A DNA stretch of 64,000 nt from Pseudoalteromonas ulvae UL12. GTDB lineage: Bacteria; Pseudomonadota; Gammaproteobacteria; Enterobacterales; Alteromonadaceae. Of this stretch, positions 44,425 to 63,366 are shown in pieces. How positions within the stretch are numbered: the first letter of the stretch is position 1; each line of letters begins with the position of its first letter. The translations under genes were made by a program, and so were the position numbers. The stretch covers positions 1 through 64,000 of the forward strand of contig NZ_AQHJ01000021.1 of the NCBI RefSeq assembly GCF_014925405.1. The letters run 5' to 3'. The notes beneath the pieces are model-generated. The model saw only the letters and a program-made list of their open reading frames with translations, searched no databases and was not told where the DNA came from.

Positions 44425-44469
44425 AATAATGATTTTGATAAACAGTAAATACGAGGCATTGGCCATCGT
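44425..44469 (+). promoter_or_regulatory. cassette leader 1: -10 box and bulged hairpin
   Basis: AATAAT at 44425-44430, then 20 nt, then hairpin ACGAGGCATTGGCCATCGT at 44451-44469 (ACGA/TCGT, GGC/GCC, loop ATTG, bulged A). The start codon follows 17 nt later with AGGTG between. Confidence 0.8.
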
Positions 44470-44486
44470 GAATATAGGTGAAAAAT

Positions 44487-44903
44487 ATGGAATCAAAATC
44501 ATTCTGCGAACAGGAGGTGTTGGCATTAATTGCTGATGCTGAAAATACGTTCTTATCTGAAGAATATGATCGCTTAAACGGTATGTGTGAGTCGTTCCTA
44601 AAGCCGCTTGATAGGTTGAGAAACGAAAGACTTTCAGATACTAGCGATTCATTGTTAAGAGTTAGTACTTATCTGAAAAAGTTGTCCTGTAACATTAATG
44701 GCCGAATCAAAGGCTTTAAAGGAAAGGATGAAGAGGCTTTTCAGCTTGGTAGCTGGTTTATGTTTTGGTGTGATAGTAAATCCGGAGAATTATCGACTGT
44801 TGGTCGGGTTAATCTCTTCCGATATTTGAACTCTAAAAGACAACCGGTAGAAATAACTAACAACGTGGTGGCGTTAGATGGTTGGAATAAAAAGGTCGCA
44901 TAG
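44487..44903 (+). CDS. cassette gene, hypothetical
   Basis: A 138-residue helical protein starting MESKSFCEQEVLALIADAENTFL, not recognised. ATG 44487 is chosen because AGGTG (44476-44480) is properly spaced and the conserved leader ends just before. Residues 85-110 (GKDEEAFQLGSWFMFWCDSKSGELSTVGR) contain two Trp and a Cys. A monocistronic cassette: leader 1 upstream, terminator overlapping its last codons. Function unknown; soluble. Confidence 0.65.
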   Translation: MESKSFCEQEVLALIADAENTFLSEEYDRLNGMCESFLKPLDRLRNERLSDTSDSLLRVSTYLKKLSCNINGRIKGFKGKDEEAFQLGSWFMFWCDSKSGELSTVGRVNLFRYLNSKRQPVEITNNVVALDGWNKKVA

Positions 44904-44914
44904 CGGCCTTTTTT
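44892..44914 (+). terminator. cassette terminator
   Basis: AAGGTCGC-ATA-GCGGCCTT stem plus T run; the same design recurs at 58678 and 59723. Confidence 0.88.
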
Positions 44915-44966
44915 ATTGGCTTAAATTATTTTTTGATAGATAAGGTTAGGTTGGCATTATATTGGG

Positions 44967-45012
44967 TAATATGATCCAGTTGAACGTAAATACGGGGCAA
45001 TTGGGCCATCGT
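44967..45012 (+). promoter_or_regulatory. cassette leader 2: divergent bulged hairpin
   Basis: TAATAT-like -10 at 44967-44972. The hairpin ACGGGGCAATTGGGCCATCGT at 44992-45012 keeps ACGG/TCGT (G-U wobble), GGC/GCC and the bulged A, with a six-base loop. Start codon GTG 45037 follows 24 nt later after AAGGTG. Confidence 0.65.
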
Positions 45013-45036
45013 GTTAATATTTATAAGGTGTTTAAT

Positions 45037-45381
45037 GTGAATGAATATAAAGAATGTCCTCGATGTCACTCTAGCGTCGAAGCGCGTGTAACTGTATGTG
45101 GTAACTGTAAAGCAGTGGAACACGTTGGATGGACTGATAAAGAGTTTGGGCTGTACAGAAATAAGGTTTGGGGCAGTATTGTATTGCTTTCAATCTTAGG
45201 CATGTTCTTTGTGCCATCTTACCTAAATAAAAACTTTGATCTGGAAATTGGTAATTTCTTCAGTATTGGGCCAATTGGCGTTTTGGTATTGGGTGCAGTC
45301 GCTTTTGCAATCGCACACATGGCAGCAAAATCAAAAGAAGCAAAGAATAGCAACCTGGTCAGATGGTTCTGGAATGAGTAG
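45037..45381 (+). CDS. zinc-ribbon membrane protein (cassette)
   Basis: A 114-residue protein. The N-terminal zinc ribbon is CPRCHSSVEARVTVCGNCKA (residues about 7-26, two CxxC knuckles). Two membrane helices follow (about 45-64, VWGSIVLLSILGMFFVPSYL; about 80-98, IGPIGVLVLGAVAFAIAHMA). GTG 45037 is chosen because AAGGTG (45025-45030) and the leader hairpin end upstream; earlier in-frame starts would place the hairpin inside the gene. Function unknown. Confidence 0.65.
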   Translation: MNEYKECPRCHSSVEARVTVCGNCKAVEHVGWTDKEFGLYRNKVWGSIVLLSILGMFFVPSYLNKNFDLEIGNFFSIGPIGVLVLGAVAFAIAHMAAKSKEAKNSNLVRWFWNE

Positions 45382-45403
45382 GTTTTCTACTTATTAATAA
45401 AAC

Positions 45404-45428
45404 AACCGGCTAATGCCGGTTTTTTTTA
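45404..45428 (+). terminator. cassette terminator
   Basis: AACCGGC-TAAT-GCCGGTT stem followed by T8; repeated in design at 46498 and 63769. Confidence 0.9.
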
Positions 45429-45460
45429 TGTATGTATCACTATTCAAAGAGCAGTAATGG

Positions 45461-45505
45461 CAAAATATGGAGGTTGATTAGTAAATACGAGGCATTGGCC
45501 ATCGT
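45461..45505 (+). promoter_or_regulatory. cassette leader 3: extended -10 and bulged hairpin
   Basis: TGG-CAAAAT (hexamer 45461-45466), 20 nt, hairpin ACGAGGCATTGGCCATCGT at 45487-45505, 17 nt to ATG 45523 with GAGGAA. Confidence 0.82.
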
Positions 45506-45522
45506 GAAATTGAGGAATAATT

Positions 45523-46491
45523 ATGACTTTGGATATGTTTGCTTGTAGTGATGACTCAGCAAAGTTAACAGTGTTATCTATGGGATTAGGGCAGGATAGT
45601 ACAGCGCTTCTTTATAAGTATGTTTATGATGAGCACTTTAAAAAGCAGTACGCACCAAATGATTTTTTGGTGATTTTTTCTGATACAGGGAACGAATTCC
45701 CCCAGACCTATGAACATTTAGAAAGCATTAAGATATTTTGTGAAACTCACGGTATTGAATTTGTTCATCTAATACCTGAGATGGGATATCACACTGGAGA
45801 TTGGCAATCTCTTGAGCACTTCTATGAAGTAAAAGAAGCTGTTGGATCAAAAGCCTACCCTAAAATTTGTAGTCAACGACTGAAAATTGAGCCTATTTAT
45901 CGTTATTTAGAAGATTATTTAGGTCAAAAATACGGTGTTAAAGTTGGTAAGAAAAAAGGGTTTCGACAATTTGCTGTTGAGTTCGGAAAAGTACAGATGA
46001 TGATCGGTATTGCAAAGAACGAAGAAAAGCGAATGAGTGATGCGGCTGATAGAAAAGAGCGCTGGTATCGTGAATCTATCGAACATATTTACCCTTTGGT
46101 TGATATGAACATGGATCGCAAAGGTTGTCAGACGTATATAAAGTCTGTTGGCCATAAGATACCAATTCCTAGTAACTGCATGATGTGTCCGTTTTTGTCT
46201 GAGGAAGAATTGGAGTATCTGCGTAGATTCGAACCTAAAGCTTTAGAAAATTGGATTTACTACGAAAAGCGTAAGCTTAATCGTTGGAGCCATTTAGAAG
46301 CTGTGCCGGTTAATAAAGGCACTGATGATGAACCGCGAATTGTATACGTCAATAAAAACCTGGGCGTATGGGGCAAACGTCGATTACCGGAAATGGTAAG
46401 TATCGTTCAAGAAAAGTTTAAAAACTGGACTGATGATATGATCATCGATTACCGAATGTCACATGGTCACTGTGTTGCTTCGGCATACTAA
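45523..46491 (+). CDS. PP-loop (PAPS-reductase-like) enzyme
   Basis: A 322-residue enzyme of the adenine nucleotide alpha-hydrolase / PAPS reductase superfamily. The PP-loop SMGLGQDSTALL (about 19-30) should bind ATP or PAPS-like nucleotide. FSDTGNEFPQTYEH (about 50-63) and CSQRLKIEPIYRYL (about 118-131) are family-like. The C-terminal SNCMMCPF (about 217-224) is a possible metal or Fe-S site. Plasmid and phage members are often found with DNA-modification or anti-defence genes; the substrate cannot be told from sequence. Monocistronic cassette with leader 3 and its own terminator. Confidence 0.78.
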   Translation: MTLDMFACSDDSAKLTVLSMGLGQDSTALLYKYVYDEHFKKQYAPNDFLVIFSDTGNEFPQTYEHLESIKIFCETHGIEFVHLIPEMGYHTGDWQSLEHFYEVKEAVGSKAYPKICSQRLKIEPIYRYLEDYLGQKYGVKVGKKKGFRQFAVEFGKVQMMIGIAKNEEKRMSDAADRKERWYRESIEHIYPLVDMNMDRKGCQTYIKSVGHKIPIPSNCMMCPFLSEEELEYLRRFEPKALENWIYYEKRKLNRWSHLEAVPVNKGTDDEPRIVYVNKNLGVWGKRRLPEMVSIVQEKFKNWTDDMIIDYRMSHGHCVASAY

Positions 46492-46497
46492 AAAAAT

Positions 46498-46520
46498 CCG
46501 GCATTAGCCGGTTTTTTTTT
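46498..46520 (+). terminator. cassette terminator
   Basis: CCGGC-ATTA-GCCGG stem with a T9 tract. Confidence 0.9.
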
Positions 46521-46550
46521 GCCCTCTCTCCTTAATGCTTATAAGCATGG

Positions 46551-46595
46551 CAAAATATAGAGGTTGATTAGTAAATACGAGGCATTGGCCATCGT
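46551..46595 (+). promoter_or_regulatory. cassette leader 4
   Basis: TGG-CAAAAT (46551-46556), 20 nt, hairpin ACGAGGCATTGGCCATCGT (46577-46595), 14 nt to ATG 46610 with AAGGAA. Confidence 0.82.
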
Positions 46596-46609
46596 GATAA
46601 GGAATAAAT

Positions 46610-47044
46610 ATGAAAAAGGTAGAGGTTTATCTTAACCGTAAAGCTATGGGTAAAAGTCCTAAGCGAATTTACTCTATTAGAGACACTATAACGGATACCG
46701 TTGTTGCTTCTAATAGTTGTGTTCTGCTTGAGAATGTTGAGCTTGTCGTTCAACCCAGCGGTCGTAGAGATACGTTATCGCGTATCGAGCGAGGTGCCAA
46801 AATAACGAAAACAGTTCATGCGTTCCTTCGTGGCAATATTGTCTATCGAGGAAGAAATGCTAAGAAAGTGAGTAAAGAACGAGGTTTATTTTGTGCCGGT
46901 AAAGCCGTTGGTTATGATCCGATTAAAACGGATTCATGGCTAGAGCTGAATGGGTTAAAAATGCCTGAAATTGTCGAAGGTCTTAAATCGATAACAAGAG
47001 CTAAATATGCTGTTTTGTTTGAAGATGGGATCTACGTTTTATAA
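46610..47044 (+). CDS. cassette gene with 'VHAF' family motif
   Basis: A 144-residue protein. The segment VYLNRKAMGKSPKRIYSIRD, LLENVELVVQPSGRRDTLSRIERGAKITKTVHAFLRGNIV is a conserved module also present in the 59239 gene (VRVYRNLNKPEFYSILAI, RQRVLREQRRNVHAFCEGYIV), so the two are paralogues. I recall similar short proteins in plasmids and phages without a known function. The rest, ITRAKYAVLFEDGIYVL, is beta-rich. Monocistronic, with leader 4 and a terminator overlapping the stop. Confidence 0.68.
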   Translation: MKKVEVYLNRKAMGKSPKRIYSIRDTITDTVVASNSCVLLENVELVVQPSGRRDTLSRIERGAKITKTVHAFLRGNIVYRGRNAKKVSKERGLFCAGKAVGYDPIKTDSWLELNGLKMPEIVEGLKSITRAKYAVLFEDGIYVL

Positions 47045-47066
47045 AAGCCCTTCTGGGCTTTTTTTA
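47044..47066 (+). terminator. cassette terminator
   Basis: AAAGCCC-TTCT-GGGCTTT followed by T; the stem begins at the stop codon of the preceding gene. Confidence 0.88.
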
Positions 47067-47098
47067 TTTTGAAGCAAATTCAGGGTTAATTATCACGA

Positions 47099-47143
47099 TA
47101 AACTAGAGTTGTAATTAAGTAATAACGAGGCACTGGCCATCGT
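47099..47143 (+). promoter_or_regulatory. cassette leader 5
   Basis: TAAACT (47099-47104), 20 nt, hairpin ACGAGGCACTGGCCATCGT (47125-47143; loop ACTG instead of ATTG, stems unchanged), 18 nt to ATG 47162 with GAGG. Confidence 0.8.
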
Positions 47144-47161
47144 GAAATTGAGGAAAATATT

Positions 47162-47467
47162 ATGCAAACTTTAGTTAATGTAGAAAAAATCGATCCTAGT
47201 ATTGCTGCTTGGATGGCTGCCCTTGAAGCTGACTTTGAATATGTTGAGTTACAAGAGCTATTTTCTGGTGAATTCGGAATTGCCTTTCAAGATGTATATT
47301 CTGTCATTACAGGAAATTTTCAACATTTAGATGATGTGTTATCTAAATGTTTATTAGCGAATGAACGTAGTGATGTAGATCATGTTATTAATACGCTTGC
47401 TGAAATAGGTGCAATAGAAACTGTTGGTGACTTTGTTGCGTTAGCACCAAGCAAAAACCTGTCGTAA
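47162..47467 (+). CDS. cassette gene, acidic hypothetical
   Basis: A 101-residue acidic helical protein beginning MQTLVNVEKIDPSIAAWMAALEADFEYVELQELFSGEF, not recognised. No signal, Cys or membrane helix. Small acidic proteins of this type can be DNA mimics, but no specific evidence is present. Monocistronic; leader 5 precedes it and its last codons lie in the terminator stem (47456-47475). Confidence 0.62.
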   Translation: MQTLVNVEKIDPSIAAWMAALEADFEYVELQELFSGEFGIAFQDVYSVITGNFQHLDDVLSKCLLANERSDVDHVINTLAEIGAIETVGDFVALAPSKNLS

Positions 47468-47484
47468 GACGGGTTTTTTTTTGC
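47456..47484 (+). terminator. cassette terminator
   Basis: AACCTGTC-GTAA-GACGGGTT stem (one wobble) followed by T9. Confidence 0.85.
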
Positions 47485-47511
47485 TTGTCACTTCTATGTT
47501 AAAGGAGCTGA

Positions 47512-47556
47512 TAAGCTAGAGGGGAATTTAAGTAGATACGAGGCATTGGCCATCGT
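47512..47556 (+). promoter_or_regulatory. cassette leader 6
   Basis: TAAGCT (47512-47517) preceded by TGA, 20 nt, hairpin ACGAGGCATTGGCCATCGT (47538-47556), 14 nt to ATG 47571 with TAGGAG. Confidence 0.8.
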
Positions 47557-47570
47557 GAATAGGAGTTAAT

Positions 47571-48020
47571 ATGAAACTGATTATGTGGACTAATGGTGAC
47601 AAGCTTATACGTGGCGCTGTCGTTGAAAGGCGAGAGAGTCGAAATAAGTATGCAGTAGACATCATACTTGAAGATGGACGTTGGTTTAACAACGCTCCGG
47701 AACGAGCGTTAATGCTTAACATTAATTGGATCCTTACTGATCAGGATGTTGATACTAATGAGGTAAATACCTGGTTAGAGCTAAGTAAAGTACGCGAACA
47801 GTATGTGTTTAGTGCGGTAGTAACACTTCAATCTAATGGTGAGAAGGCTGGTGTAAATATTTATCGTAGAGCACCGGTTATCAAAGCAAAGAATATTGAA
47901 GAGGCTGAGTTATCAATTCGTCGTCACTATGGCGATGATTGTGTCTTAGAAATATCAGATTTAAAATTATCTGACTGCCAAATCGGGCCTATCTGGTGCG
48001 ATACAATAGAAGCCTCTTAA
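47571..48020 (+). CDS. cassette gene, hypothetical
   Basis: A 149-residue protein, beta-rich at the start (MKLIMWTNGDKLIRGAVVERRESRNKYAVDIILEDGRWFNNA) and mixed later (IEEAELSIRRHYGDDCVLEISDLKL). Not recognised. It has leader 6 and a weak terminator at its end, after which another gene begins within 30 bases. No export signal. Confidence 0.62.
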   Translation: MKLIMWTNGDKLIRGAVVERRESRNKYAVDIILEDGRWFNNAPERALMLNINWILTDQDVDTNEVNTWLELSKVREQYVFSAVVTLQSNGEKAGVNIYRRAPVIKAKNIEEAELSIRRHYGDDCVLEISDLKLSDCQIGPIWCDTIEAS

Positions 48021-48032
48021 AGAGGCTTTTAT
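48010..48032 (+). terminator. weak terminator between cassette genes
   Basis: AAGCCTCT-TAA-AGAGGCTT followed by TTATTTTT; interrupted T tract, so some read-through into the 48049 gene is likely. Confidence 0.7.
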
Positions 48033-48048
48033 TTTTCGTGAGGTGTAA

Positions 48049-48333
48049 TTGATGGAGCAGAACGGACAAGCTGTAATTTTGTTTTCATTTAAAGTTCAGG
48101 GAGTGGATTTCGAACAGTACTGTTACTGTAAAGAAAATGACTTTGATGTTTATGGTGTACGGCTTGTAACAATGCCGGAAGTCATCAAAGGTGTTTCTGA
48201 TGATAAGTGGGAAGCTAAGGAAGATTTTAAGTTCAATTTGCTGCTTAGTAATAACAGCGAGTTACATTCTGCAGTTAGTAGTTCTACATGTAGAATTATC
48301 GAAAAAGAAGGCGGAACTATCGCCTTGAATTAA
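48049..48333 (+). CDS. cassette-associated hypothetical, carries palindrome copy 8
   Basis: A 94-residue protein (MEQNGQAVILFSFKVQGVDFEQYCYCKENDFDVYGVRL...), not recognised. It lacks a leader hairpin; GTGAGGTG upstream gives a ribosome site. It is probably read through from the previous cassette. ATG 48052 is an alternative start. The dispersed palindrome in its 3' part is read in a different frame here (STCRII) than in the other intragenic copies, showing that the constraint is on the DNA. Confidence 0.55.
   Translation: MMEQNGQAVILFSFKVQGVDFEQYCYCKENDFDVYGVRLVTMPEVIKGVSDDKWEAKEDFKFNLLLSNNSELHSAVSSSTCRIIEKEGGTIALN
48282..48295. repeat. dispersed palindrome TTCTACATGTAGAA, copy 8 (intragenic)
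   Basis: Perfect copy inside the 48049-48333 gene, about 130 bp before leader 7. Confidence 0.75.
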
Positions 48334-48369
48334 ATAATTATTATAACGATATACTGCCCCCAACCATTT

Positions 48370-48393
48370 ACCCCGCACTGCGGGGTTTTTTTT
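48370..48393 (+). terminator. cassette terminator
   Basis: ACCCCGC-ACT-GCGGGGT stem followed by T8. Confidence 0.9.
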
Positions 48394-48424
48394 ATTCAAC
48401 GGCTCTACAAATGCCTGTTTGTGG

Positions 48425-48469
48425 CAAAATAATCATGATTTTTAGTAAATACGAGGCATTGGCCATCGT
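48425..48469 (+). promoter_or_regulatory. cassette leader 7
   Basis: TGG-CAAAAT (48425-48430), 20 nt, hairpin ACGAGGCATTGGCCATCGT (48451-48469), 17 nt to ATG 48487 with AGGTG. Confidence 0.82.
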
Positions 48470-48486
48470 GAATAAAGGTGAAAAAT

Positions 48487-49602
48487 ATGAAAACATTAAA
48501 GCAAGCAGTAGAGTGTCTAACGTCTTTTGGTAATGCAGTAGACTTTAAAGGTTTGAAAAAACTGTATAAAAAAGCTGCGTTATTGGTGCATTCAGATCGA
48601 GCGAAAGAGCATGGTTGTTCTTACAATATGGTTGATTTGAATAATGCCTGGGGCATGATCAGCAATAACGTTGAATCAGCGTTGATGCTAATTGAAGGTA
48701 GTGAAGTTCTAGAAAAGGCTCGCGTTTTTGCGAACTCTTGGAAAGACGATCCTCTTCATGAAGCGTCAGTTCCAAGTTTTTACACTGTAGAAACTATGGC
48801 TAAGAAAGCTTGGAACATTGTTGAGGATGGTGAAGACGGTAACTTCGTCTGGTTTAATCCTAGTAAGCATGTTACTTACATTAAGGATTCTAATCTGGAG
48901 TATCGCTACTATTACGGTGGTGATGTTATCAGCTTTTATGATCTTGAAAACTCATTTAAAACGGGCAAAGAGTGTACCGGCTTTCGTGTATGCCATGACC
49001 GTTTAACTGATCGTAGTTTTATGGAGATTTGGAGTGAAATTCTGAATGAGTATTGCGAGACTCCAACACCCAAAGGTGTGTGGACTTGGCTTACAAGTTT
49101 AGAAATGGTTGATAATGGTCGTTATCACGGTAAATGCGCTGAAATTAAAGTGGGTGATAGTTCAGTACGGGTATATGAAGACAATGTATCCGGCAACAAA
49201 AACTTCTCGCCATTTGTGATTAATCGCGTTAAGCCAGTTGCATCGATGCCAAAAAAATGGACGGTAGTACAGCTTAGAAAAATATTGGCTAATGGTCAAT
49301 TTTCAAAGTATAAGCAGGACTACTATATGACCGATGATTATGCTGGAGATGCGGCAAGTAACTTTCGCAAAGGGTATTACCAAAATCCTCTTGATAGTTA
49401 TGCTGATATCCTTACGTGTAATCACATGCGGGTTTGGAGTAACCAAAATGAAGACGGTACAGTAGTTCTACATTTGGGTGCTCATAGCAATGACGGTCGC
49501 TCTTTAATTGTTGATTTAAATAATCGGTATCCAATAGTTGATATGGAAGCGGAAGAGGCTCAATACCTTACCGGTGATATAAAGCTTATAGATGCTGCCT
49601 AA
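48487..49602 (+). CDS. J-domain-like protein (cassette)
   Basis: A 371-residue protein. The N-terminal segment LKKLYKKAALLVHSDRAKEHGCSYNMVDLNNAWGMI (about 22-57) resembles a DnaJ J-domain, but the hallmark HPD is HSD (about 35-37). The remaining 300 residues have two repeated-looking blocks (VETMAKKAWNIVEDGEDGNFVWF, and later VVQLRKILANGQFSKY) and are not recognised. It might engage host DnaK or mimic a J-protein; loss of Pro in HPD normally impairs DnaK stimulation. Soluble. Monocistronic with leader 7 and terminator. Confidence 0.62.
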   Translation: MKTLKQAVECLTSFGNAVDFKGLKKLYKKAALLVHSDRAKEHGCSYNMVDLNNAWGMISNNVESALMLIEGSEVLEKARVFANSWKDDPLHEASVPSFYTVETMAKKAWNIVEDGEDGNFVWFNPSKHVTYIKDSNLEYRYYYGGDVISFYDLENSFKTGKECTGFRVCHDRLTDRSFMEIWSEILNEYCETPTPKGVWTWLTSLEMVDNGRYHGKCAEIKVGDSSVRVYEDNVSGNKNFSPFVINRVKPVASMPKKWTVVQLRKILANGQFSKYKQDYYMTDDYAGDAASNFRKGYYQNPLDSYADILTCNHMRVWSNQNEDGTVVLHLGAHSNDGRSLIVDLNNRYPIVDMEAEEAQYLTGDIKLIDAA

Positions 49603-49609
49603 AATAGAA

Positions 49610-49635
49610 AACCTCGCTTAGCGGGGTTTTTTTAT
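49610..49635 (+). terminator. cassette terminator
   Basis: AACCTCGC-TTA-GCGGGGTT followed by T7. Confidence 0.88.
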
Positions 49636-49665
49636 GTCTGTCGTAAAATTCATTGCGTTAAATGG

Positions 49666-49710
49666 TATATTGATCCGGATTTTAAGTAATAACGAGGCAT
49701 TGGCCATCGT
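49666..49710 (+). promoter_or_regulatory. cassette leader 8
   Basis: TGG-TATATT (49666-49671), 20 nt, hairpin ACGAGGCATTGGCCATCGT (49692-49710), 18 nt to ATG 49729 with GAGGAA. Confidence 0.82.
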
Positions 49711-49728
49711 GTAAATGAGGAAAATAAT

Positions 49729-51692: not shown

Positions 51693-51717
51693 AAAAGGCC
51701 GTAAGGCCTTTTTTTAT
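51693..51717 (+). terminator. cassette terminator
   Basis: AAAAGGCC-GTAA-GGCCTTTT followed by T. Confidence 0.9.
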
Positions 51718-51746: not shown

Positions 51747-51791
51747 TATACTTATTAAGAATTTTAGAAAGAGCGAAGCATAGGCTATCGC
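51747..51791 (+). promoter_or_regulatory. cassette leader 9 (GCGA class)
   Basis: TGT-TATACT (51747-51752), 20 nt, hairpin GCGAAGCATAGGCTATCGC (51773-51791): GCGA/TCGC and AGC/GCT, loop ATAG, bulged A retained. Then 17 nt to ATG 51809 with TTGGAG. First copy with both stems changed in a compensatory way. Confidence 0.82.
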
Positions 51792-51808
51792 GTATATTGG
51801 AGATAATT

Positions 51809-56897: not shown

Positions 56898-56942
56898 TAT
56901 AGTAAATATGAATGTATGTAAAAACGAGGCATTGGCCATCGT
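56898..56942 (+). promoter_or_regulatory. cassette leader 10 (ACGA class)
   Basis: TATAGT (56898-56903), 20 nt, hairpin ACGAGGCATTGGCCATCGT (56924-56942), 17 nt to ATG 56960 with AGGAG. Confidence 0.8.
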
Positions 56943-56959
56943 GTTATAGGAGTTTAAAA

Positions 56960-57319: not shown

Positions 57320-57320
57320 A

Positions 57321-57575: not shown

Positions 57576-57580
57576 AAAAT

Positions 57581-57605
57581 GCCGCATTTATTGCGGCTTT
57601 TTTTT
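57581..57605 (+). terminator. cassette terminator
   Basis: GCCGCA-TTTAT-TGCGGC followed by T9; near-identical layout at 58122. Confidence 0.9.
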
Positions 57606-57634
57606 GCTTAACTTAAAGTTTATCGGTTTAGTGG

Positions 57635-57679
57635 TATAGTTATCTTGATTATTAGCAAAAGCGAAGCATAGGCTATCGC
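57635..57679 (+). promoter_or_regulatory. cassette leader 11 (GCGA class)
   Basis: Extended -10 TGG-TATAGT (57635-57640), 20 nt, hairpin GCGAAGCATAGGCTATCGC (57661-57679), 16 nt to ATG 57696 with AAGGAA. Confidence 0.82.
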
Positions 57680-57695
57680 GTAAAAGGAAAAAATT

Positions 57696-58091
57696 ATGAA
57701 AAACTCGGTTCTTAATATTGGACTATTAAAACAGTTAGCTATGTGGTTAGACGATAACGTAGATCAAGGAACAGAATTGGTGTTTGGTGAATCAGAGGGG
57801 ATTGAAATTAATTCTGAATCAGTCTTACCTTCGATTGAATCAGCTATAAATGTTTTAGGTTGTTTTGTTGTTGTAGGTCGTGTTGCTGAACAAGAAAACA
57901 TCATGTTATTCATTAAAGCCGATAATATTGATTCAGCACATGCGATTTTTCTCAAGAAAGTTAAACTTGAACATGATTGGAATGGTCATGATGATATTTA
58001 TGTTGACTTTTGTATCAAGTTATCTGATTTAGCTATAGACCATGTTTATAGCGAACCCGATACATGTGAGGTTTTTTGTTTTAACTCTTAA
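57696..58091 (+). CDS. cassette gene, acidic hypothetical
   Basis: A 131-residue strongly acidic protein (MKNSVLNIGLLKQLAMWLDDNVDQGTELVFGESEGIEINSESVLPSIESAINVLG...). Not recognised; low positive charge and small size are compatible with a DNA mimic, which is speculation. Monocistronic with leader 11 and terminator. Confidence 0.62.
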   Translation: MKNSVLNIGLLKQLAMWLDDNVDQGTELVFGESEGIEINSESVLPSIESAINVLGCFVVVGRVAEQENIMLFIKADNIDSAHAIFLKKVKLEHDWNGHDDIYVDFCIKLSDLAIDHVYSEPDTCEVFCFNS

Positions 58092-58121
58092 TGACAGATG
58101 AATACAGATTCACTAAAAAAT

Positions 58122-58146
58122 GCCGCTCTATAGCGGCTTTTTTTTG
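58122..58146 (+). terminator. cassette terminator
   Basis: GCCGCT-CTAT-AGCGGC followed by T9. Confidence 0.9.
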
Positions 58147-58174
58147 CTTAATCTAAAGTCTATTAAGTAAGTGG

Positions 58175-58219
58175 TATAGTTAGTTTGATTTTTAACAAAA
58201 GCGAAGCTGCAGCTATCGC
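58175..58219 (+). promoter_or_regulatory. cassette leader 12 (GCGA class)
   Basis: Extended -10 TGG-TATAGT (58175-58180), 20 nt, hairpin GCGAAGCTGCAGCTATCGC (58201-58219; loop TGCA), 18 nt to ATG 58238. Confidence 0.82.
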
Positions 58220-58237
58220 GCATAAAAGGTTTGTACT

Positions 58238-58669
58238 ATGGAAAACTCAAGTAAAGTTATTACAGAATTGAAACTGGGCCGTAACATTCATCAAATTACA
58301 AAAGCTGATCGTTTTTTAGATAACGGCTTATGTGTTCAACTTTTAAAGGCTAAGCCTATGAAGGTTAGGTATGGTGAAAAAGATACGATGACATTAAAGG
58401 AAGGTGATTTGGAGCATCTTGCTAAGTTTGGCCAAATTACTCATGGCCATCATGAGTATCGAGGCTGTAAAGTGTTTAGCTTAGTTCATCCGGAAGAAAA
58501 ATTTTACGTGATGGGTTATTGTAACCAGGTTGATATCGATAATAAGGAAGGTCGCTTTTTAGGAGCTGAAGGTTATTATCATAATGCTCGTAAAACAAAA
58601 AATGAAAATGTTAACAGCTTTTTTGCTGTAAAGATTTTCGATTCAGATATGGAAGAAGTCAATTATTAG
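58238..58669 (+). CDS. cassette gene, hypothetical
   Basis: A 143-residue protein (MENSSKVITELKLGRNIHQITKADRFLDNGLCVQLLKAKPMKVRYGEKDTMTLKEGDLEHLAKFG...) with several His (GQITHGHHEYRGC). Not recognised. Ribosome site AAAGG is spaced 9-10 bases from ATG 58238. Monocistronic with leader 12 and terminator. Confidence 0.62.
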   Translation: MENSSKVITELKLGRNIHQITKADRFLDNGLCVQLLKAKPMKVRYGEKDTMTLKEGDLEHLAKFGQITHGHHEYRGCKVFSLVHPEEKFYVMGYCNQVDIDNKEGRFLGAEGYYHNARKTKNENVNSFFAVKIFDSDMEEVNY

Positions 58670-58677
58670 GATATAAA

Positions 58678-58702
58678 AAGGTCGCTTAGCGGCCTTTTTT
58701 AT
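58678..58702 (+). terminator. cassette terminator
   Basis: AAGGTCGC-TTA-GCGGCCTT followed by T. Confidence 0.9.
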
Positions 58703-58732
58703 TTTTACTTAAAAATTCAGCCAATAGGCTGG

Positions 58733-58779
58733 TATATTTAGTGTTGAAATATTAGCAAAAGCGAAGCATTAGCTATCGC
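58733..58779 (+). promoter_or_regulatory. cassette leader 13 (GCGA class)
   Basis: TGG-TATATT (58733-58738), 22 nt, hairpin GCGAAGCATTAGCTATCGC (58761-58779; loop ATTA), 16 nt to ATG 58796 with AGGAAG. Confidence 0.82.
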
Positions 58780-58795
58780 ATATAGGAAGATTATT

Positions 58796-59164
58796 ATGAA
58801 ATTTGCAACGCAAAAATGTTTAGACGGTGAAACCCTTATTGTCGGCCCAGGTTTATTAAGTCAAGAAGTAAAAATGGTTGTTACACTTCTGTCAAAATGT
58901 CGATTTAGTGATGTTGACGATATTTTGTGTGCTTCTAATGCTGTTGATGAAGAGATCTGGTCTTTAATATGTGAAAGGGATCGTAAAGTCATCTACTCGA
59001 TAATTGCCAATACGTACAGTATTTATATTGATGATATTGATAAATTTATCGATATTCTTTGCAGTGATGGCATTGAGCTTTGTTTTGACGATGGTACCTT
59101 TATTCCAGATGGTGAATATCTGTTAGGTTTAGAGAACACGATTGTTAAGAATAAGGTCGCGTAA
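58796..59164 (+). CDS. cassette gene, acidic hypothetical
   Basis: A 122-residue acidic protein (MKFATQKCLDGETLIVGPGLLSQEVKMVVTLLSKCRFSDVDDILCASNAVDEEIW...). Repeating DD/ED patches (IDDIDKFIDILCSDGIELCFDDG). Not recognised. First gene of a two-gene cassette; the intergenic segment to the next gene folds into alternative hairpins. Confidence 0.62.
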   Translation: MKFATQKCLDGETLIVGPGLLSQEVKMVVTLLSKCRFSDVDDILCASNAVDEEIWSLICERDRKVIYSIIANTYSIYIDDIDKFIDILCSDGIELCFDDGTFIPDGEYLLGLENTIVKNKVA

Positions 59165-59232
59165 AGTAGTTAAAACGCCCTTGGGGAAAATGTTCCCCTG
59201 TAGGGTCATTTCCCTGCATTCTATTAAGAGGA
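59165..59232 (+). promoter_or_regulatory. intercistronic alternative hairpins
   Basis: GGGGAA-AATG-TTCCCC (59183-59198) is a perfect stem. AGGG at 59202-59205 can pair either with CCCT 59178-59181, extending that stem, or with CCCT 59212-59215 downstream. No T tract follows, so this is not a simple terminator; it may tune expression of the second gene. Confidence 0.4.
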
Positions 59233-59238
59233 AATGTG

Positions 59239-59709
59239 ATGTCTACGGAGTCAAATGGACTAAAAGAGTCTATGTTTGTCGATGGTGCTTTTGAATCTAA
59301 AGTTGGTAAAGTAACTAGGATTTGCAAGCATTTGATGAGGGTTAGAGTGTATCGAAACCTTAATAAGCCTGAGTTTTATTCTATTCTAGCTATTGAAGGT
59401 GAAAATAAGGGAAAGGTAATTGGATATGCTCGTTCTGTCTTGATTAAAGATTGTAAGTTTAAGGTAAGTGAAGCGTCGAGGCAAAGAGTTCTTAGAGAGC
59501 AGCGTCGAAACGTACATGCTTTCTGTGAAGGCTATATCGTTGATGCGTCTGAGTCGGCCCAGTCTCTAAAAGGTGATGAGATAGTGATTACATATAATCC
59601 TTACAAGTTACCTACCTTTTATAAAAGGTCTGACGAAACTGCTCAAACTGACAACTGTGCTCAAGCGCTCCTCCAGGGAAGTGATGTGCATATCATTGAT
59701 AACATTTAA
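59239..59709 (+). CDS. 'VHAF'-family protein, paralogue of the 46610 gene
   Basis: A 156-residue protein. The segment MRVRVYRNLNKPEFYSILAIEGENKGKVIGYARSVLIKDCKFKVSEASRQRVLREQRRNVHAFCEGYIV (about 35-102) corresponds to the module in the 46610 gene. The extra N-terminal 35 residues and the longer C-terminal tail differ. ATG 59239 follows AGAGGA. Second gene of a cassette; function unknown. Confidence 0.65.
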   Translation: MSTESNGLKESMFVDGAFESKVGKVTRICKHLMRVRVYRNLNKPEFYSILAIEGENKGKVIGYARSVLIKDCKFKVSEASRQRVLREQRRNVHAFCEGYIVDASESAQSLKGDEIVITYNPYKLPTFYKRSDETAQTDNCAQALLQGSDVHIIDNI

Positions 59710-59722
59710 GGTTGTATTCAAT

Positions 59723-59748
59723 AAGGTCGCTTTGCGGCCTTTTTTTTT
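59723..59748 (+). terminator. cassette terminator
   Basis: AAGGTCGC-TTT-GCGGCCTT followed by T9. Confidence 0.9.
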
Positions 59749-59776
59749 GGTTTAAAAAAAGATTCGGAGAAAGTGT

Positions 59777-59821
59777 TAAAATTACCGTGATTTTTAACAA
59801 CAGCGAAGCAATAGCTATCGC
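59777..59821 (+). promoter_or_regulatory. cassette leader 14 (GCGA class)
   Basis: TGT-TAAAAT (59777-59782), 20 nt, hairpin GCGAAGCAATAGCTATCGC (59803-59821; loop AATA), 16 nt to ATG 59838 with TAGGT. Confidence 0.82.
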
Positions 59822-59837
59822 GTATTAGGTAAATAAT

Positions 59838-60167
59838 ATGAGTAATGAAAAACACTATTTAATTACAACAGAATTTAGAATTGGCGAAATAGTTGAATCT
59901 ATCACAAGAGTTTGTAAATCGGCTATGCGGCCTGAAGCGTGTCAAGCTGAAGTTGCTCAAGGTATGAATTGTGGTAGCTTTGATAAGGATATGTATAGTA
60001 GACCATGTTTCGATATTGATGGCTTTATTACATACCCTTCGTCTATCAAAGAGATAGATGAAAGCACATTTGATCTATTGATGTCACATATTGAGTTCTA
60101 TCCTTTAGAACAAAACGAAAGTGAGTTAAGTCAAGATGTAAAAGAGTTTTTAGAAGCAACGGTATGA
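59838..60167 (+). CDS. cassette gene, hypothetical
   Basis: A 109-residue protein (MSNEKHYLITTEFRIGEIVESITRVCKSAMRPEACQAEVAQGMNCGSFDKDMYSRPCF...). Four Cys in the central part may bind metal but without a clear knuckle pattern. Acidic C terminus. Not recognised. Monocistronic with leader 14 and terminator. Confidence 0.62.
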   Translation: MSNEKHYLITTEFRIGEIVESITRVCKSAMRPEACQAEVAQGMNCGSFDKDMYSRPCFDIDGFITYPSSIKEIDESTFDLLMSHIEFYPLEQNESELSQDVKEFLEATV

Positions 60168-60185
60168 TGACTTTTACTTACATTA

Positions 60186-60212
60186 AAAAGTACCTTTCTG
60201 GTGCTTTTTTTT
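60186..60212 (+). terminator. cassette terminator
   Basis: AAAGTACC-TTTCT-GGTGCTTT stem (one mismatch) followed by T. Confidence 0.85.
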
Positions 60213-60242
60213 TACGTGAAGAATATGAAAACCATTACGATG

Positions 60243-60287
60243 TATAGTTAACATGACTTTTAACAAAAGCGAAGCAGAAGCTATCGC
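60243..60287 (+). promoter_or_regulatory. cassette leader 15 (GCGA class)
   Basis: TATAGT (60243-60248), 20 nt, hairpin GCGAAGCAGAAGCTATCGC (60269-60287; loop AGAA), 19 nt to ATG 60307 with AAGGAAA. Confidence 0.82.
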
Positions 60288-60306
60288 GTATAAGGAAAAT
60301 ATAACA

Positions 60307-60633
60307 ATGTATCCTAAAAATGTATCTGGATTCTCAATCACTATGGTAGAGATTATTTCAGCAAATATATCTGGACAAGTAATTGGCCATTCACAATTAT
60401 CTTCAGGCTCTGATTGGCTTGGTAGCTTTATCTGTGATGTGTTAGATGGTATCGATGCAAGCGATATTAAGCTTTCAGTACTTGACCGACTGTTGGAGAA
60501 AAATAGTCCTGAACTTAAAGGTTACATTTATACGTTGTATAAAGAAACTGTTGATTTCAGGCCTACAATGCGATTGATTGAAGCTTCTGAAGCTAGGGCA
60601 TGTGATCCAGATTTTTTGGCACAACAATTCTAA
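60307..60633 (+). CDS. cassette gene, hypothetical
   Basis: A 108-residue protein (MYPKNVSGFSITMVEIISANISGQVIGHSQLSSGSDWLGSFICDVLDGIDASDIKLSVLDRLLE...). Not recognised; helical C-terminal half. ATG 60307 is chosen because the leader hairpin and AAGGAAA come just before; the upstream ATG at 60253 would translate through the hairpin. Monocistronic. Confidence 0.62.
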   Translation: MYPKNVSGFSITMVEIISANISGQVIGHSQLSSGSDWLGSFICDVLDGIDASDIKLSVLDRLLEKNSPELKGYIYTLYKETVDFRPTMRLIEASEARACDPDFLAQQF

Positions 60634-60666
60634 GAACGATATTCGGCGTAGCCGATATCTACAGTA

Positions 60667-60695
60667 AAAGGTACCTTTAGGTGCCTTTTTTTTGG
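60667..60695 (+). terminator. cassette terminator
   Basis: AAAGGTACC-TTTA-GGTGCCTTT stem followed by T. Confidence 0.88.
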
Positions 60696-60749
60696 GCGTA
60701 ATATATTCGTTATAAGCTGTTAAAATTCTTTTAGCGAAATATGGAGGTA

Positions 60750-61460
60750 ATGTTGGGTAAAAAGCAAAAACTAAGATACTCATTAAAAAGAATGTTGAGC
60801 TATAACGGTGCTGGTTTTTCTAACCTTGTTAGGGATAAAGATAGAATAATAGACTTTATTGTTGATACGCTTTTAGAAGGAGGGTATAGAGGAATGTCAC
60901 CTTATTCAATTAAACCGAAGCATATTAAATATATGACAACAAAGTGGAGAGAAGAAAAAATAGGTGAAAGTCAATTTTCTGATGCCATGCGATTAGTTTA
61001 TTGGTGGGTTGTTTTGGTAGGAAAAACAAACATCTTAGTAGAGTATAAACAATATTGTTTAACCATATATTGCTGCAAATGTGAAATAGATGTTGAAGCT
61101 AGGCTAACTAATGGCCGTGAAATTTATCCACATAGCAAAGGGGTATCTAATTTACCGTTTTGGATTTGTGATGGTTGTAGTAATTATGTAGGGTGTCATC
61201 ACAAAACTAAAACTAGAATAAAGCCTTTGGGTCACATTCCTTCTAAAGAGTTACGCAACGCACGTAAACATATTCATATCTTATTAGACCCAATATGGAA
61301 AGACGGGTTAGTGAGTAGAAGTCAAATTTATGCGGATTTAAGTAAAGAGTTGGGATGGTCATTTCATATAGCATTAATAAGAAGTATTGAAGAAGCACGA
61401 AATGTTTATAGAGTTATTAGAACAATGAAACATAAATACATAACTAAAGGGGTGCCTTGA
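60750..61460 (+). CDS. integrase-N-like domain fused to DUF3268-type zinc finger
   Basis: About 236 residues. The N-terminal 95 (LVRDKDRIIDFIVDTLLEGGYRGMSPYSIKPKHIKYMTTKW...SQFSDAMRLVYWWVVLVGK) resembles the SAM-like N domain of phage tyrosine integrases. No catalytic domain follows. Instead comes a zinc module, IYCCKCEIDVEARLTNGREIYPHSKGVSNLPFWICDGCSNYVGCHH, then PLGHIPSKELRNARKHIHILLDPIWKDGLVSRSQIYADLSKELG, the DUF3268 signature. A DNA-binding accessory role is inferred. The start is unclear: ATG 60741, ATG 60750 or TTG 60753; GGAGG at 60743-60747 favours the later ones. Confidence 0.7.
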   Translation: MLGKKQKLRYSLKRMLSYNGAGFSNLVRDKDRIIDFIVDTLLEGGYRGMSPYSIKPKHIKYMTTKWREEKIGESQFSDAMRLVYWWVVLVGKTNILVEYKQYCLTIYCCKCEIDVEARLTNGREIYPHSKGVSNLPFWICDGCSNYVGCHHKTKTRIKPLGHIPSKELRNARKHIHILLDPIWKDGLVSRSQIYADLSKELGWSFHIALIRSIEEARNVYRVIRTMKHKYITKGVP

Positions 61461-61468
61461 TTAACTAC

Positions 61469-61502
61469 AAGATATCCACAAATTTTGTGGATATCTTTAT
61501 TT
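61469..61502. terminator. bidirectional terminator between convergent genes
   Basis: AAGATATCCACAAA and TTTGTGGATATCTT form a 14-bp near-perfect stem with A and T tracts on either side, between the plus-strand zinc-finger gene and the minus-strand recombinase gene. Confidence 0.85.
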
Positions 61503-62452
61503 TACCTTAAATATACACCGGTTATCGAAGCCCTGAAGTGTCCCAGTTCTTGAGAGACTATTAACTTAGCTTGTTTATCCGAATAGCCTTTACCTGTTAA
61601 GTGTGCCATTCTGGATTGAGCGTACTGGTGACGCAAACCATGTGCGCCATTACTCATGCCTAATGCTCTTTTGCTTGCAGTTGAGAATGATTTTGAAAAT
61701 GAGTTTCCACCACCAATGTCATAGTGGGATGTATATTTAACCTTACGATCCATTATTTCAACTGGGGTTTCATATCGCCTTGCTTCAAGCTCTTTCGCTA
61801 AATCAGACGGTATTCTTATTTCGCGTACTAGCCCTCCCTTCCCTGCTACTACATACCTTTCACCATCTAAGCCATTAAAGCGCTCTTTACTCCACTGCCT
61901 ATTTGATGTGATTTGTAATTCGTCAGCTTTTCTTATTTGCAATAATTCGTGAGCACGTAAACCTGCAGCATGAGCTATTTTTGTTGCCAAAGCATTACGT
62001 GTAGTTTGAGCTTCAGATATTGCTTTAACCTGAAAGTCAGTATATGACCTAGATTTTGCAGCATTGGATGCTGCTGAATATACTCTAGCAATTGGTAATC
62101 CCAGTAGTATAGAGAGCGCTTTGCGCTCAGCGTCCAAAGTTTTTTGGGTCAAAAGCCTTTGGTTAGATCTATCCTTAATTTCTACATGTAGAACATTTTG
62201 CCCTGCTCGTTCGGCTTCTCTTCTTGAAATTAAAAATTCTTGAGCTTCTTCTATATTAATATGCTTTAACCGTGATACACCCATAGACTCGGCAATCCTA
62301 GCCAATGTCGAAGCTGATTCTTTATAGCTTCTCATCGAAGTAAATTGCTTGTATGGTGTTTTACCAATATTTCCAACATTGGATTTAGATTTACCCATAG
62401 CCAAATGTTTTTTCAGTAGAGCTTCAGATTGCTCAAGTAGTGATTTAGCCAT
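61502..62452 (-). CDS. tyrosine recombinase / integrase
   Basis: A 316-residue tyrosine recombinase with R166 (HAAGLRAHEL), K205 (GKGGLVREI), H271 and R274 (HGLRHQYA), H305 (ELGHFRA) and Y314 close to the C terminus (TGVYLR). The N-terminal half is a core-binding region. It is transcribed with the 96-residue protein upstream, overlapping it by 8 bases. It may resolve plasmid multimers or integrate the element; the folded GC-rich palindrome behind it is a candidate site. A perfect dispersed palindrome (62180-62193) lies inside the gene and encodes LHVE. Confidence 0.88.
   Translation of the reverse strand: MAKSLLEQSEALLKKHLAMGKSKSNVGNIGKTPYKQFTSMRSYKESASTLARIAESMGVSRLKHINIEEAQEFLISRREAERAGQNVLHVEIKDRSNQRLLTQKTLDAERKALSILLGLPIARVYSAASNAAKSRSYTDFQVKAISEAQTTRNALATKIAHAAGLRAHELLQIRKADELQITSNRQWSKERFNGLDGERYVVAGKGGLVREIRIPSDLAKELEARRYETPVEIMDRKVKYTSHYDIGGGNSFSKSFSTASKRALGMSNGAHGLRHQYAQSRMAHLTGKGYSDKQAKLIVSQELGHFRASITGVYLR
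62180..62193. repeat. dispersed palindrome TTCTACATGTAGAA, copy 9 (inside recombinase gene)
   Basis: Perfect copy in the coding sequence of the minus-strand recombinase. Confidence 0.75.
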
Positions 62453-62735
62453 TTATACCTATCTCTTTATCTACAGTATCAAGGTGCTTTTTTGTGAATT
62501 GTTGCACTGCTTGTTTAGTTACTCTTATACGTTTGTTTTGGCGTAGCCAAAGAGCAATATCGGCATAGCTTGCTTCTTCAACCATGCGCAAATATAGAAT
62601 GTCGTTAAGATAACGATTGAGTCTGCTTGAGCTTAGTCGTCTTCTTTTTCTACGACGCTTAATGTCATCAATTTGCGTTTCAAGCAATTCATACCGTTCG
62701 ATTCCTGCTTGTTTTTTATCTTTGTCACTGGTCAT
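62445..62735 (-). CDS. small helix-turn-helix protein upstream of recombinase
   Basis: A 96-residue basic protein (KRRRKRRRLSSSRLNRYLNDILYLRMVEEASYADIALWLRQNKRIRVTKQAVQQFTKKHL). The SYADIALWLRQNKRIRVTKQAVQQF stretch (about 56-80) looks like a helix-turn-helix. Its stop overlaps the recombinase start, implying co-translation. It could be a directionality factor or repressor for the recombinase. Similar HTH-recombinase pairs occur in mobile elements; no specific family named. Confidence 0.65.
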   Translation of the reverse strand: MTSDKDKKQAGIERYELLETQIDDIKRRRKRRRLSSSRLNRYLNDILYLRMVEEASYADIALWLRQNKRIRVTKQAVQQFTKKHLDTVDKEIGING

Positions 62736-62830
62736 TTTTTTCTGTTTTGAACTTCAAAAAGTTTTAAAATTGTCATAGATCATATCAAAAAATTTGCTCA
62801 AAAAAGGCGTCAAGATAAAACGTAAAGCAA

Positions 62831-62953
62831 ATTTGTCTGGGGGCCAACGGTAGCGCGCGCTCTAGGTGAGTGTGAAACGCTCACCTAGAGCGCGCGCGCC
62901 CTACGACACAATTGCTTGTGATGTGTCGGAGGGGCCGTGGCCCCCAGGCAAAT
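62831..62953. repeat. nested three-stem palindrome (cruciform)
   Basis: Outer arms 62831-62845 and 62939-62953 (CTGGGGGCC/GGCCCCCAG core, one wobble over 15 bp). Inner arm 1: 62853-62870 with 62880-62897, 18 bp perfect, 9-base loop. Inner arm 2: CGACACA 62904-62910 with TGTGTCG 62922-62928. Much more GC-rich than the rest of the window. In single-stranded DNA this would form a stable three-way structure. Confidence 0.8.
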
Positions 62954-63181
62954 GTTGAGGCGCTGAAAGCCCGAGCAATTTGACTTTAGAGGGGGAGTGA
63001 AACGACCACCATTACCCCGCCGCGACTTTGGAGCGGTGGCAAAAATAGGCTTTGCTTGTGATGTGACATAGCTAGATCGTCAGATCATTTTAATATCGAT
63101 TTAGATCAAAAGTTCGAATAATTTTTTTGTTGTCATGTGTTGAAATCGAAGTAGCACGATAGTCGTTCAAGTTCGAATATT

Positions 63182-63246
63182 GAGTTATCCATCATGCGCC
63201 CACTACAGACCGGAGGAATAATCTGTCGTGGCAATTGTGGGTAACT
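63182..63246. repeat. 65-bp hairpin-forming direct repeat, copy B
   Basis: Same orientation as copy A at 55875-55939, with three mismatches. Together they bracket 7.3 kb that includes cassette leaders 10-15, the zinc-finger protein and the second recombinase. Confidence 0.8.
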
Positions 63247-63250
63247 CTGC

Positions 63251-63264
63251 TTCTACATGTAGAA
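63251..63264. repeat. dispersed palindrome TTCTACATGTAGAA, copy 10
   Basis: Perfect copy 5 bp after copy B of the 65-bp repeat and about 130 bp upstream of the DUF3577-like gene. Confidence 0.75.
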
Positions 63265-63320
63265 TACAAAGCTGGATAGATTAAATATTTTTAGTCCCCC
63301 TTTATTCAAAAATAGATAGG

Positions 63321-63366
63321 TATACTGTTTGTGATTGTTAAGTAATAACGAAATTTTGATTATCGT
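63321..63366 (+). promoter_or_regulatory. cassette leader 16 (AAT/ATT class)
   Basis: TATACT (63321-63326), 21 nt, hairpin ACGAAATTTTGATTATCGT (63348-63366): ACGA/TCGT and AAT/ATT, loop TTTG, bulged A. A third stem-2 variant with compensating changes. 15 nt to ATG 63382 with GAGGAA. Confidence 0.8.

What the first reader, a model, noticed from the sequence alone, without database searches (positions are those of the whole stretch)
44425..63366. A covarying 19-nt bulged hairpin in the leaders of sixteen plasmid genes
Seen directly: hairpins at 44451, 44992, 45487, 46577, 47125, 47538, 48451, 49692, 51773, 56924, 57661, 58201, 58761, 59803, 60269 and 63348. All share a 4-bp stem, a 3-bp stem, a loop (usually 4 nt) and a single bulged A on the 3' side. 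Stem 1 is ACGA/TCGT, ACGG/TCGT or GCGA/TCGC; stem 2 is GGC/GCC, AGC/GCT or AAT/ATT; loops are ATTG, ACTG, ATAG, TGCA, ATTA, AATA, AGAA, TTTG. Compensatory changes on both arms with an invariant bulge imply selection on structure. Fifteen start codons follow at 14-19 nt and one at 24 nt, all on the same strand. Inference: a cis RNA element near the ribosome site, bound by an unknown protein or tuning mRNA stability. The size and bulged A with a tetraloop recall RNA-phage coat-protein operators, though the bulge is on the other strand. I do not recognise the motif.
Basis: partly seen in the sequence, partly recalled or inferred. Interest (0 to 1): 0.95.

Follow-up and report, generated by a model that had tools for sequence, protein, structure and literature searches.

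The report
Shared RNA hairpin on plasmid genes
A small bulged RNA hairpin sits at the start of the messages of many accessory genes on a family of marine-bacterial plasmids and on a few chromosomal islands related to them, and looks like a shared control tag that I found described nowhere.

Summary
Confirmed. All 16 hairpins are where stated, with starts at 14-19 nt (15) and 24 nt (1); two more lie further along the 70.5-kb contig. The element recurs in three other plasmids of the same conjugative-type family and in small islands. Of 71 plasmid sites listed, 70 have all 7 pairs, in 18 helix types (sites chosen partly by pairing). A test anchored only on CGA...TCG gives inner pairing in 64 of 94 upstream cases against 10 of 270 on the opposite strand. 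Orthologous leaders carry different, still paired stems. Rfam has no match on them. The hairpin starts 17-22 nt after a predicted -10 box in 67 of 71 sites; 59 lie just before a start codon, 12 head longer leaders. Best reading: a 5'-leader RNA operator, read by an unidentified factor, tagging establishment-type genes. Stabiliser, antitermination and ssDNA promoter remain rivals. All 7 of 395 genomes with a BisC-like 322-aa protein are among the 9 of 395 with the hairpin: a candidate factor, not proof.

The parts
44451..44469 (+). hairpin before gene 44487-44903 (138 aa, unknown)
44992..45012 (+). divergent hairpin (ACGG/TCGT, 6-nt loop) before zinc-ribbon-like gene 45037-45381 (GTG start)
   Evidence: (16.1 bits only)
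45487..45505 (+). hairpin before PAPS-reductase-like gene 45523-46491
46577..46595 (+). hairpin before Phage_L5_gp82-domain gene 46610-47044
47125..47143 (+). hairpin before gene 47162-47467
47538..47556 (+). hairpin before gene 47571-48020
48451..48469 (+). hairpin before gene 48487-49602
49692..49710 (+). hairpin before DUF3560 gene 49729-51096
51773..51791 (+). hairpin before gene 51809-52231
56924..56942 (+). hairpin before gene 56960-57319
57661..57679 (+). hairpin before gene 57696-58091; TATAGT -10-like box ends 20 nt upstream
58201..58219 (+). hairpin before gene 58238-58669
58761..58779 (+). hairpin before gene 58796-59164
59803..59821 (+). hairpin before gene 59838-60167
60269..60287 (+). 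hairpin before gene 60307-60633
63348..63366 (+). weak AAT/ATT hairpin before gene 63382-63747; leaders of its relatives on three other plasmids also pair, two of them with other letters
8353..9321 (+). 322-aa BisC-like (weak DUF2857) protein found in the four hairpin-bearing plasmids and in four islands (not in the G268 or G292 genomes); candidate regulator
41822..43561 (+). TraG_N protein; its relatives in the islands stand behind a hairpin leader
5725..6942 (+). weak ParB_N-domain protein (possible BisD-like partner of the 322-aa protein)
   Evidence: partnership inferred from PMC7423338

Best explanation
A cis-acting RNA operator in the 5' leader. Each tagged gene has its own predicted sigma-70-type promoter; about 12 nt into the inferred transcript lies an A-rich stretch and then the bulged hairpin RCGA-NNN-loop-NNN-A-UCGY, usually directly before the Shine-Dalgarno sequence. 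A trans-acting factor recognises the CGA/A-UCG bulged stem and not the loop, and sets translation or stability of the message gene by gene, so that some 12-23 establishment-type genes per plasmid answer together, most plausibly in the newly entered cell. Shown: the element, its pairing, its fixed place after a predicted promoter, and that in the genomes sampled it is found on one plasmid family and a few islands. Inferred: that it acts as RNA, that a protein binds it, the direction of control, and the link to establishment.
For: Pairing kept by compensatory change at pairs 1, 2, 5, 6, 7 and by G-U at 3 and 4; anchor test 64/94 upstream versus 10/270 opposite strand; four orthologous leader sets, each with at least two different paired stems. 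G-U pairs lie on the message-sense strand. Loop 3-8 nt and the one-nt bulge argue against a double-stranded DNA operator. Stem letters CGA/AUCG are kept while loops drift, and one stem is nearly unstable alone, which suits recognition and not plain stability. 59 of 71 sites lie 12-24 nt before a start. In pKD03, 19 of 19 hairpins are intergenic and none falls in the 40-CDS replication/partition/transfer block (plus-strand CDS in the script, minus-strand CDS checked by eye).
Against: 12 of 71 sites head longer leaders, six of them without a leader-peptide start close by, so direct ribosome blocking cannot be the whole story. No binding protein is identified: no ProQ/FinO, CsrA or NusG-family gene lies on the plasmid contigs searched. 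Two measures do not exceed their shuffles clearly (pairs changed on both sides reached by 16 of 500, further pair types by 498 of 500). No transcript data; promoters are predicted. The fixed spacings could partly be inherited from one duplicated promoter-leader cassette.
Confidence: 0.45

Rival explanations
1. Factor-free 5' element: the A-rich stretch plus hairpin raises message stability or ribosome loading of plasmid genes in any host.
For: Near the inferred 5' end, before each tagged gene; Shine-Dalgarno region unpaired in the two leaders with a stable hairpin that were folded with their start region. p576 leaders have short inverted repeats thought to lengthen message life (PMC8708921, passages).
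Against: About 12 nt would stand unpaired before the hairpin (inferred start), poor as an end protector; stem letters and bulge are kept while loops drift; the 63348 stem is -0.2 kcal/mol alone.
Confidence: 0.22
2. Transcription signal: the hairpin, formed just behind the polymerase, loads an antitermination or pausing state (put-, nut- or LoaP-like).
For: Position is fixed to the predicted promoter in both leader classes; five G289 leaders and one G168 leader have a terminator-like U-run hairpin between tag and gene (by eye); T-runs, apparently of the preceding terminator, peak 56-60 nt before the hairpin.
Against: A tag on every gene is more than a processive system needs; most leaders have no terminator after the tag; no NusG-family gene on the plasmid contigs searched.
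Confidence: 0.18
3. Single-stranded-DNA promoter or other signal used on the incoming strand (Frpo-like).
For: Leading-region-like gene content and same orientation; such promoters are common there (PMC11541004, passages).
Against: RNAalifold over -60..+25 of 70 sites (RNA energies) gives only the 7-bp hairpin, with no common stem at the -10 box; in single folds that box is paired about as much as its surroundings (mean 0.52). The hairpin lies downstream of the predicted promoter. Transfer strand and oriT are unknown here.
Confidence: 0.07
4. Target of the BisC-like activator (overlaps the best explanation, since it names the factor): the 322-aa protein, perhaps with ParB, acts at or through the hairpin, and islands carry the tag to answer the plasmid.
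For: All 7 of 395 genomes with the protein are among the 9 of 395 with the hairpin (apparently the same draw; hypergeometric 1.3e-13, not corrected for shared descent); in the islands, which share little else with the plasmids, traG units and, by gene order, the int-bisC units stand behind the tag.
Against: Known relatives act as DNA-level activators (PMC7423338, PMC4207636, passages); on the window's plasmid the protein's own leader and the transfer genes carry no tag; G268 has two tandem hairpins without the protein; both may simply travel together.
Confidence: 0.12

Closest known systems
EGeRS1/EGeRS2 establishment-gene regulatory sequences of pLS20-family plasmids (PMC8708921, passages)
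   Same: A repeated upstream element shared by several establishment units of a conjugative plasmid family.
   Different: EGeRS2 is a promoter with DNA operators for a ribbon-helix-helix repressor; EGeRS1 is a 400-600-bp region with many inverted repeats. Here an 18-23-nt hairpin downstream of the promoter.
CUP elements and ArdK of IncN plasmids (recalled; only search listings seen)
   Same: A regulon of leading-region genes, each with a shared upstream element.
   Different: DNA promoter regions under a DNA-binding repressor (recalled).
Frpo/ssi single-stranded promoters (PMC11541004, passages)
   Same: Folded element associated with leading-region genes.
   Different: There the promoter boxes lie inside the fold; here the hairpin follows the predicted promoter.
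LoaP/dfn hairpin antitermination (PMC12691694, passages)
   Same: A small hairpin in the 5' leader read by a trans factor.
   Different: UNCG tetraloop, two operons, a NusG paralogue; none of these found here.
conAn processive antitermination (PMC8955417, passages)
   Same: RNA element plus element-encoded control in conjugative plasmids with many terminators.
   Different: One at the start of one long operon, Gram-positive; here one tag per gene or unit.
RNA-phage coat-protein operators (recalled)
   Same: About 19 nt, bulged A, tetraloop in some copies.
   Different: Bulge on the other strand, loop not conserved.
SGI1 with IncC AcaCD (PMC4207636, passages)
   Same: Small islands that carry integrase and transfer-apparatus genes and answer a plasmid regulon.
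   Different: AcaCD sites are DNA motifs read by a class-2-type activator.

Membership tests
Any Rfam 15 family | score over the curated gathering threshold | tested here: not met
   0 matches in the window; with E up to 1 over 44000-64000 six sub-threshold matches, none on a hairpin site
RNA-phage coat operator | bulged A on the 5' strand and conserved loop | tested here: not met
   bulge on the 3' strand; loops of 3-8 nt without conserved letters; the reference structure is recalled
LoaP/NusG-paralogue antitermination | specialised NusG paralogue on the element | tested here: not met
   PF02357 on none of the hairpin plasmid contigs or islands; 6 of 7 genomes/records have copies only on other contigs or far from the island (G231 has two), pKD03 has none
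LoaP/NusG-paralogue antitermination | UNCG tetraloop hairpin | tested here: not met
   loops vary in length and letters
HK022 put-type RNA antiterminator | read-through of downstream terminators in cis without protein | not testable with these tools
   needs transcription assays
Frpo/ssi promoter | -35 and -10 boxes inside a folded single strand | tested here: inconclusive
   no common stem at the -10 box in the consensus fold of 70 sites, RNA energies only; single folds pair it at a mean of 0.52
Double-stranded DNA operator | fixed half-site spacing and sequence | tested here: not met
   loop 3-8 nt, one-sided bulge, stem letters change together
Establishment regulon (EGeRS/CUP type) | one shared element before many units of a plasmid's accessory region | tested here: met
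   position relative to oriT not known
Establishment regulon (EGeRS/CUP type) | transient expression after transfer, controlled by a plasmid regulator | not testable with these tools
   needs experiments
BisC/DUF2857 activator (322-aa protein) | PF11198 match over the curated cut-off | tested here: inconclusive
   5 of 6 homologues tested match at E 1e-3 to 1e-6, all below the 36.8-bit cut-off; the L328 copy does not match
FlhC fold (322-aa protein) | structural match to FlhC | tested here: inconclusive
SGI1-like satellite (islands in G231, G288, G1090) | integrase, activator and transfer-gene homologue without own transfer apparatus | tested here: inconclusive
   by BLAST at E 1e-4 the C20-related proteins seen there are integrase-type, 94-aa, 322-aa and TraG_N; the fetched stretches were not searched for unrelated transfer systems; mobilisation not testable

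The most novel reading that the evidence does not exclude
A plasmid family runs its establishment genes as an RNA-level regulon: one short bulged hairpin, copied to some 12-23 messages per plasmid and kept by compensatory change, is read by an element-encoded factor of unknown type, and chromosomal satellite islands carry the same tag so as to answer or exploit the plasmid's program.
Probability: 0.3. Interest if true: 0.88.

Novelty: new variant of a known kind. Interest (0 to 1): 0.74.

Why it matters
Regulons of plasmid leading or establishment genes are known to be driven by DNA repressors or single-stranded promoters. A per-message RNA tag, shared across diverged plasmids and small islands, would be a new way to coordinate what a plasmid does on entering a cell, and the tag gives a sequence handle to find the factor and the many unknown genes behind it.

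Tried and rejected

Weak points: the A2 and 71-site sets were gathered by pairing patterns and models, so their 100% pairing is partly by construction; one search is free of that for the inner stem, though G289 lacked 20 kb there and one hairpin can be counted with more than one loop length. There, gene-strand anchors elsewhere paired in 25 of 189 (these include long-leader sites) and opposite-strand upstream anchors in 2 of 13. Two low-scoring pKD03 sites (2233 and 37244; 16.5 and 14.7 bits) are in the 19.
Full report
Observation. The sixteen listed hairpins are all present at the stated coordinates. Fifteen are 4 bp + 3 bp + 4-nt loop + bulged A; 44992 has a G-U pair and a 6-nt loop. Starts follow at 14-19 nt (15) and 24 nt (1). 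The contig (G000:C20) is 70,467 bp long and holds two more sites after the window: 66200, a copy inside a duplication of about 2.85 kb, and 69652, with a long structured leader. The own genome has 17 R1 hits, all on this contig and strand.

Related elements. R2 (39 sites) hits 9 of 395 genomes of the family at E<=0.001. Their TraD is 64-79% identical to the window's. G268 has two tandem hairpins and none of the shared genes found in the others (one search lists no C20 relative there; no 322-aa protein); G292 looks like chance. In samples of 394 genomes of the order and 369 of the class no other genome had more than one hit, all weak. In the 108 genomes of the genus 6 had a hit at E<=0.001, two of them (G1133, G1176) single weak hits not examined.

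Structure. On A2 (39 rows, 38 distinct) all 7 pairs are kept, four pairs changing on both sides; paired cells, cells changed on both sides and covariation score exceed all 500 shuffles, but the number of pairs changed on both sides is reached by 16 of 500 and the number of further pair types by 498 of 500. On 70 plasmid sites there are 18 helix types; pair types from the outside in are GC/AU; CG/UA; GC/GU; AU/GU; AU/GC; GC/CG/AU; CG/UA/UG. Because these sites were partly chosen by pairing, I anchored a second test on CGA...NTCG only: the inner three pairs form in 64 of 94 gene-strand cases upstream of starts (18/23, 25/34, 14/24, 7/13), in 25 of 189 gene-strand cases elsewhere, in 10 of 270 opposite-strand cases elsewhere and 2 of 13 opposite-strand upstream. 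Four orthologous leader sets (PAPS-like, L5 gp82-like, 63382, 69733; 3, 3, 4 and 4 members) each show at least two different stems, all 7/7 paired. G-U pairs fall on the message-sense strand. Loops are 3-8 nt; bulge A 64, G 4, C 2 of 70.

Place. In 71 plasmid sites (17 C20, 23 G168, 19 pKD03, 12 G289) the best-scoring -10 box ends 17-22 nt before the hairpin in 67. T-runs, apparently terminators of the gene before, peak 56-60 nt upstream, and A-rich sequence precedes the stem (A at -4 in 90%, at -1 in 87%). A start codon follows within 12-24 nt in 59 sites by script; by hand one missed short leader (L023:7093) and one leader-peptide start (L325:14875) cancel out, leaving 12 long leaders. Six of these (five G289, one G168) contain a possible leader-peptide start near the hairpin and a U-run hairpin before the gene (by eye); folding one shows the Shine-Dalgarno sequence paired. 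So the hairpin keeps to the predicted promoter in both classes. In pKD03, whose annotation is independent of me, 19 of 19 hairpins are intergenic; 0 lie in the 40-CDS block from replication to transfer, 5 and 14 in the two flanking parts with 7 and 37 plus-strand CDS.

What the tagged genes are. Mostly small unknown proteins; some PAPS-reductase-like, DUF3560, L5 gp82-like, and in pKD03's hairpin-bearing region DNA methyltransferases. Such content recalls leading or establishment regions (PMC11541004, PMC8708921, passages), but I did not look for an oriT and no MobH relaxase was detected.

The factor. Of the window plasmid's proteins, those with BLAST relatives in the islands are integrase-type proteins, a 94-aa protein (no hit in pKD03 or G168), TraG_N and the 322-aa protein of window 8353-9321. 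That protein is present in 7 of 395 genomes, all among the 9 with hairpins (1.3e-13, not corrected for shared descent). Its C-terminal half matches DUF2857 weakly; ICEclc BisC, a DUF2857 protein likened to FlhC, acts with the ParB-domain protein BisD to switch on transfer genes (PMC7423338, passages). In the islands the traG unit, and by gene order the int-bisC unit, stand behind the hairpin, much as SGI1 genes stand behind AcaCD sites (PMC4207636, passages). But those are DNA-level activators, and on the window's plasmid neither the 322-aa gene nor the transfer genes are tagged, so I hold it as a candidate only.

Mechanism. A double-stranded DNA operator does not suit variable loop length, a one-sided bulge and stems that change together. 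A single-stranded promoter is not supported by any common fold at the -10 box, though this was tested with RNA energies only. A plain stabiliser does not suit stems that keep CGA/AUCG and a bulge while one is nearly unstable. A processive antiterminator would not need a tag on every gene. A gene-by-gene RNA operator read by a trans factor accounts for most, at about 0.45; whether it works on translation, stability or elongation is open.

Literature. In the listings of searches (titles and starts of abstracts; open-licence PMC papers only) I saw no paper that describes this element. Papers seen as passages: PMC8955417, PMC12691694, PMC8708921, PMC11541004, PMC4207636, PMC7423338, PMC9286271. 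All others: search listings only.

Noticed in passing
window about 44080-44190; L023 about 12460-12340 (-): A stretch (TAGAAGCA..CTAGTCG.. with a terminator) similar by eye in two diverged plasmids just before the first tagged gene: a possible small RNA.
   Followed up: no
contig G000:C20 about 62920-68620: Tandem duplication of about 2.85 kb holding gene 63382 and its hairpin.
   Followed up: partly
L001 about 6110-6467 and window start: About 47-nt tandem repeats at both contig ends next to a Rep3 initiator gene: probably iterons, contig probably circular.
   Followed up: no
window about 48281, 62180, 63251; L001 about 1209: Repeated palindrome TTCTACATGTAGAA, a possible DNA operator.
   Followed up: no
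window about 55875-55938 and 63186-63248: Near-identical stretch of about 60 nt (TTATCCATCATGC..CACTACAGACCGGAGG..GTGGGTAAC) near integrase-type genes.
   Followed up: no
C20, G168:C13, G289:C21, pKD03: Conjugation-type backbone without a detectable MobH relaxase (PF07514); pKD03 is typed non-mobilizable.
   Followed up: partly
G231:C21 about 174-188 kb, G288:C1 about 3.243-3.255 Mb, G1090:C49: Compact islands with integrase, 322-aa protein and TraG_N, and varying cargo between conserved parts: likely satellites of the plasmids.
   Followed up: partly
L325:14196, 14875, 17710, 18325, 18746; L023:2946 (-): Long leader after the hairpin with a possible leader peptide and a U-run hairpin; the one folded (14196) has its Shine-Dalgarno sequence paired; five near-identical copies in one plasmid.
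   Followed up: partly
G168:C13 (L023 about 1900-3400): Repeated box CTGAACGTTTCCCACTTGGC upstream of several tagged promoters.
   Followed up: no
L001:5950-6081: Cys-rich 43-aa protein, 62-69% identical in two other plasmids, in the tagged unit near the plasmid's repeats; small zinc-finger-like candidate RNA binder.
   Followed up: no
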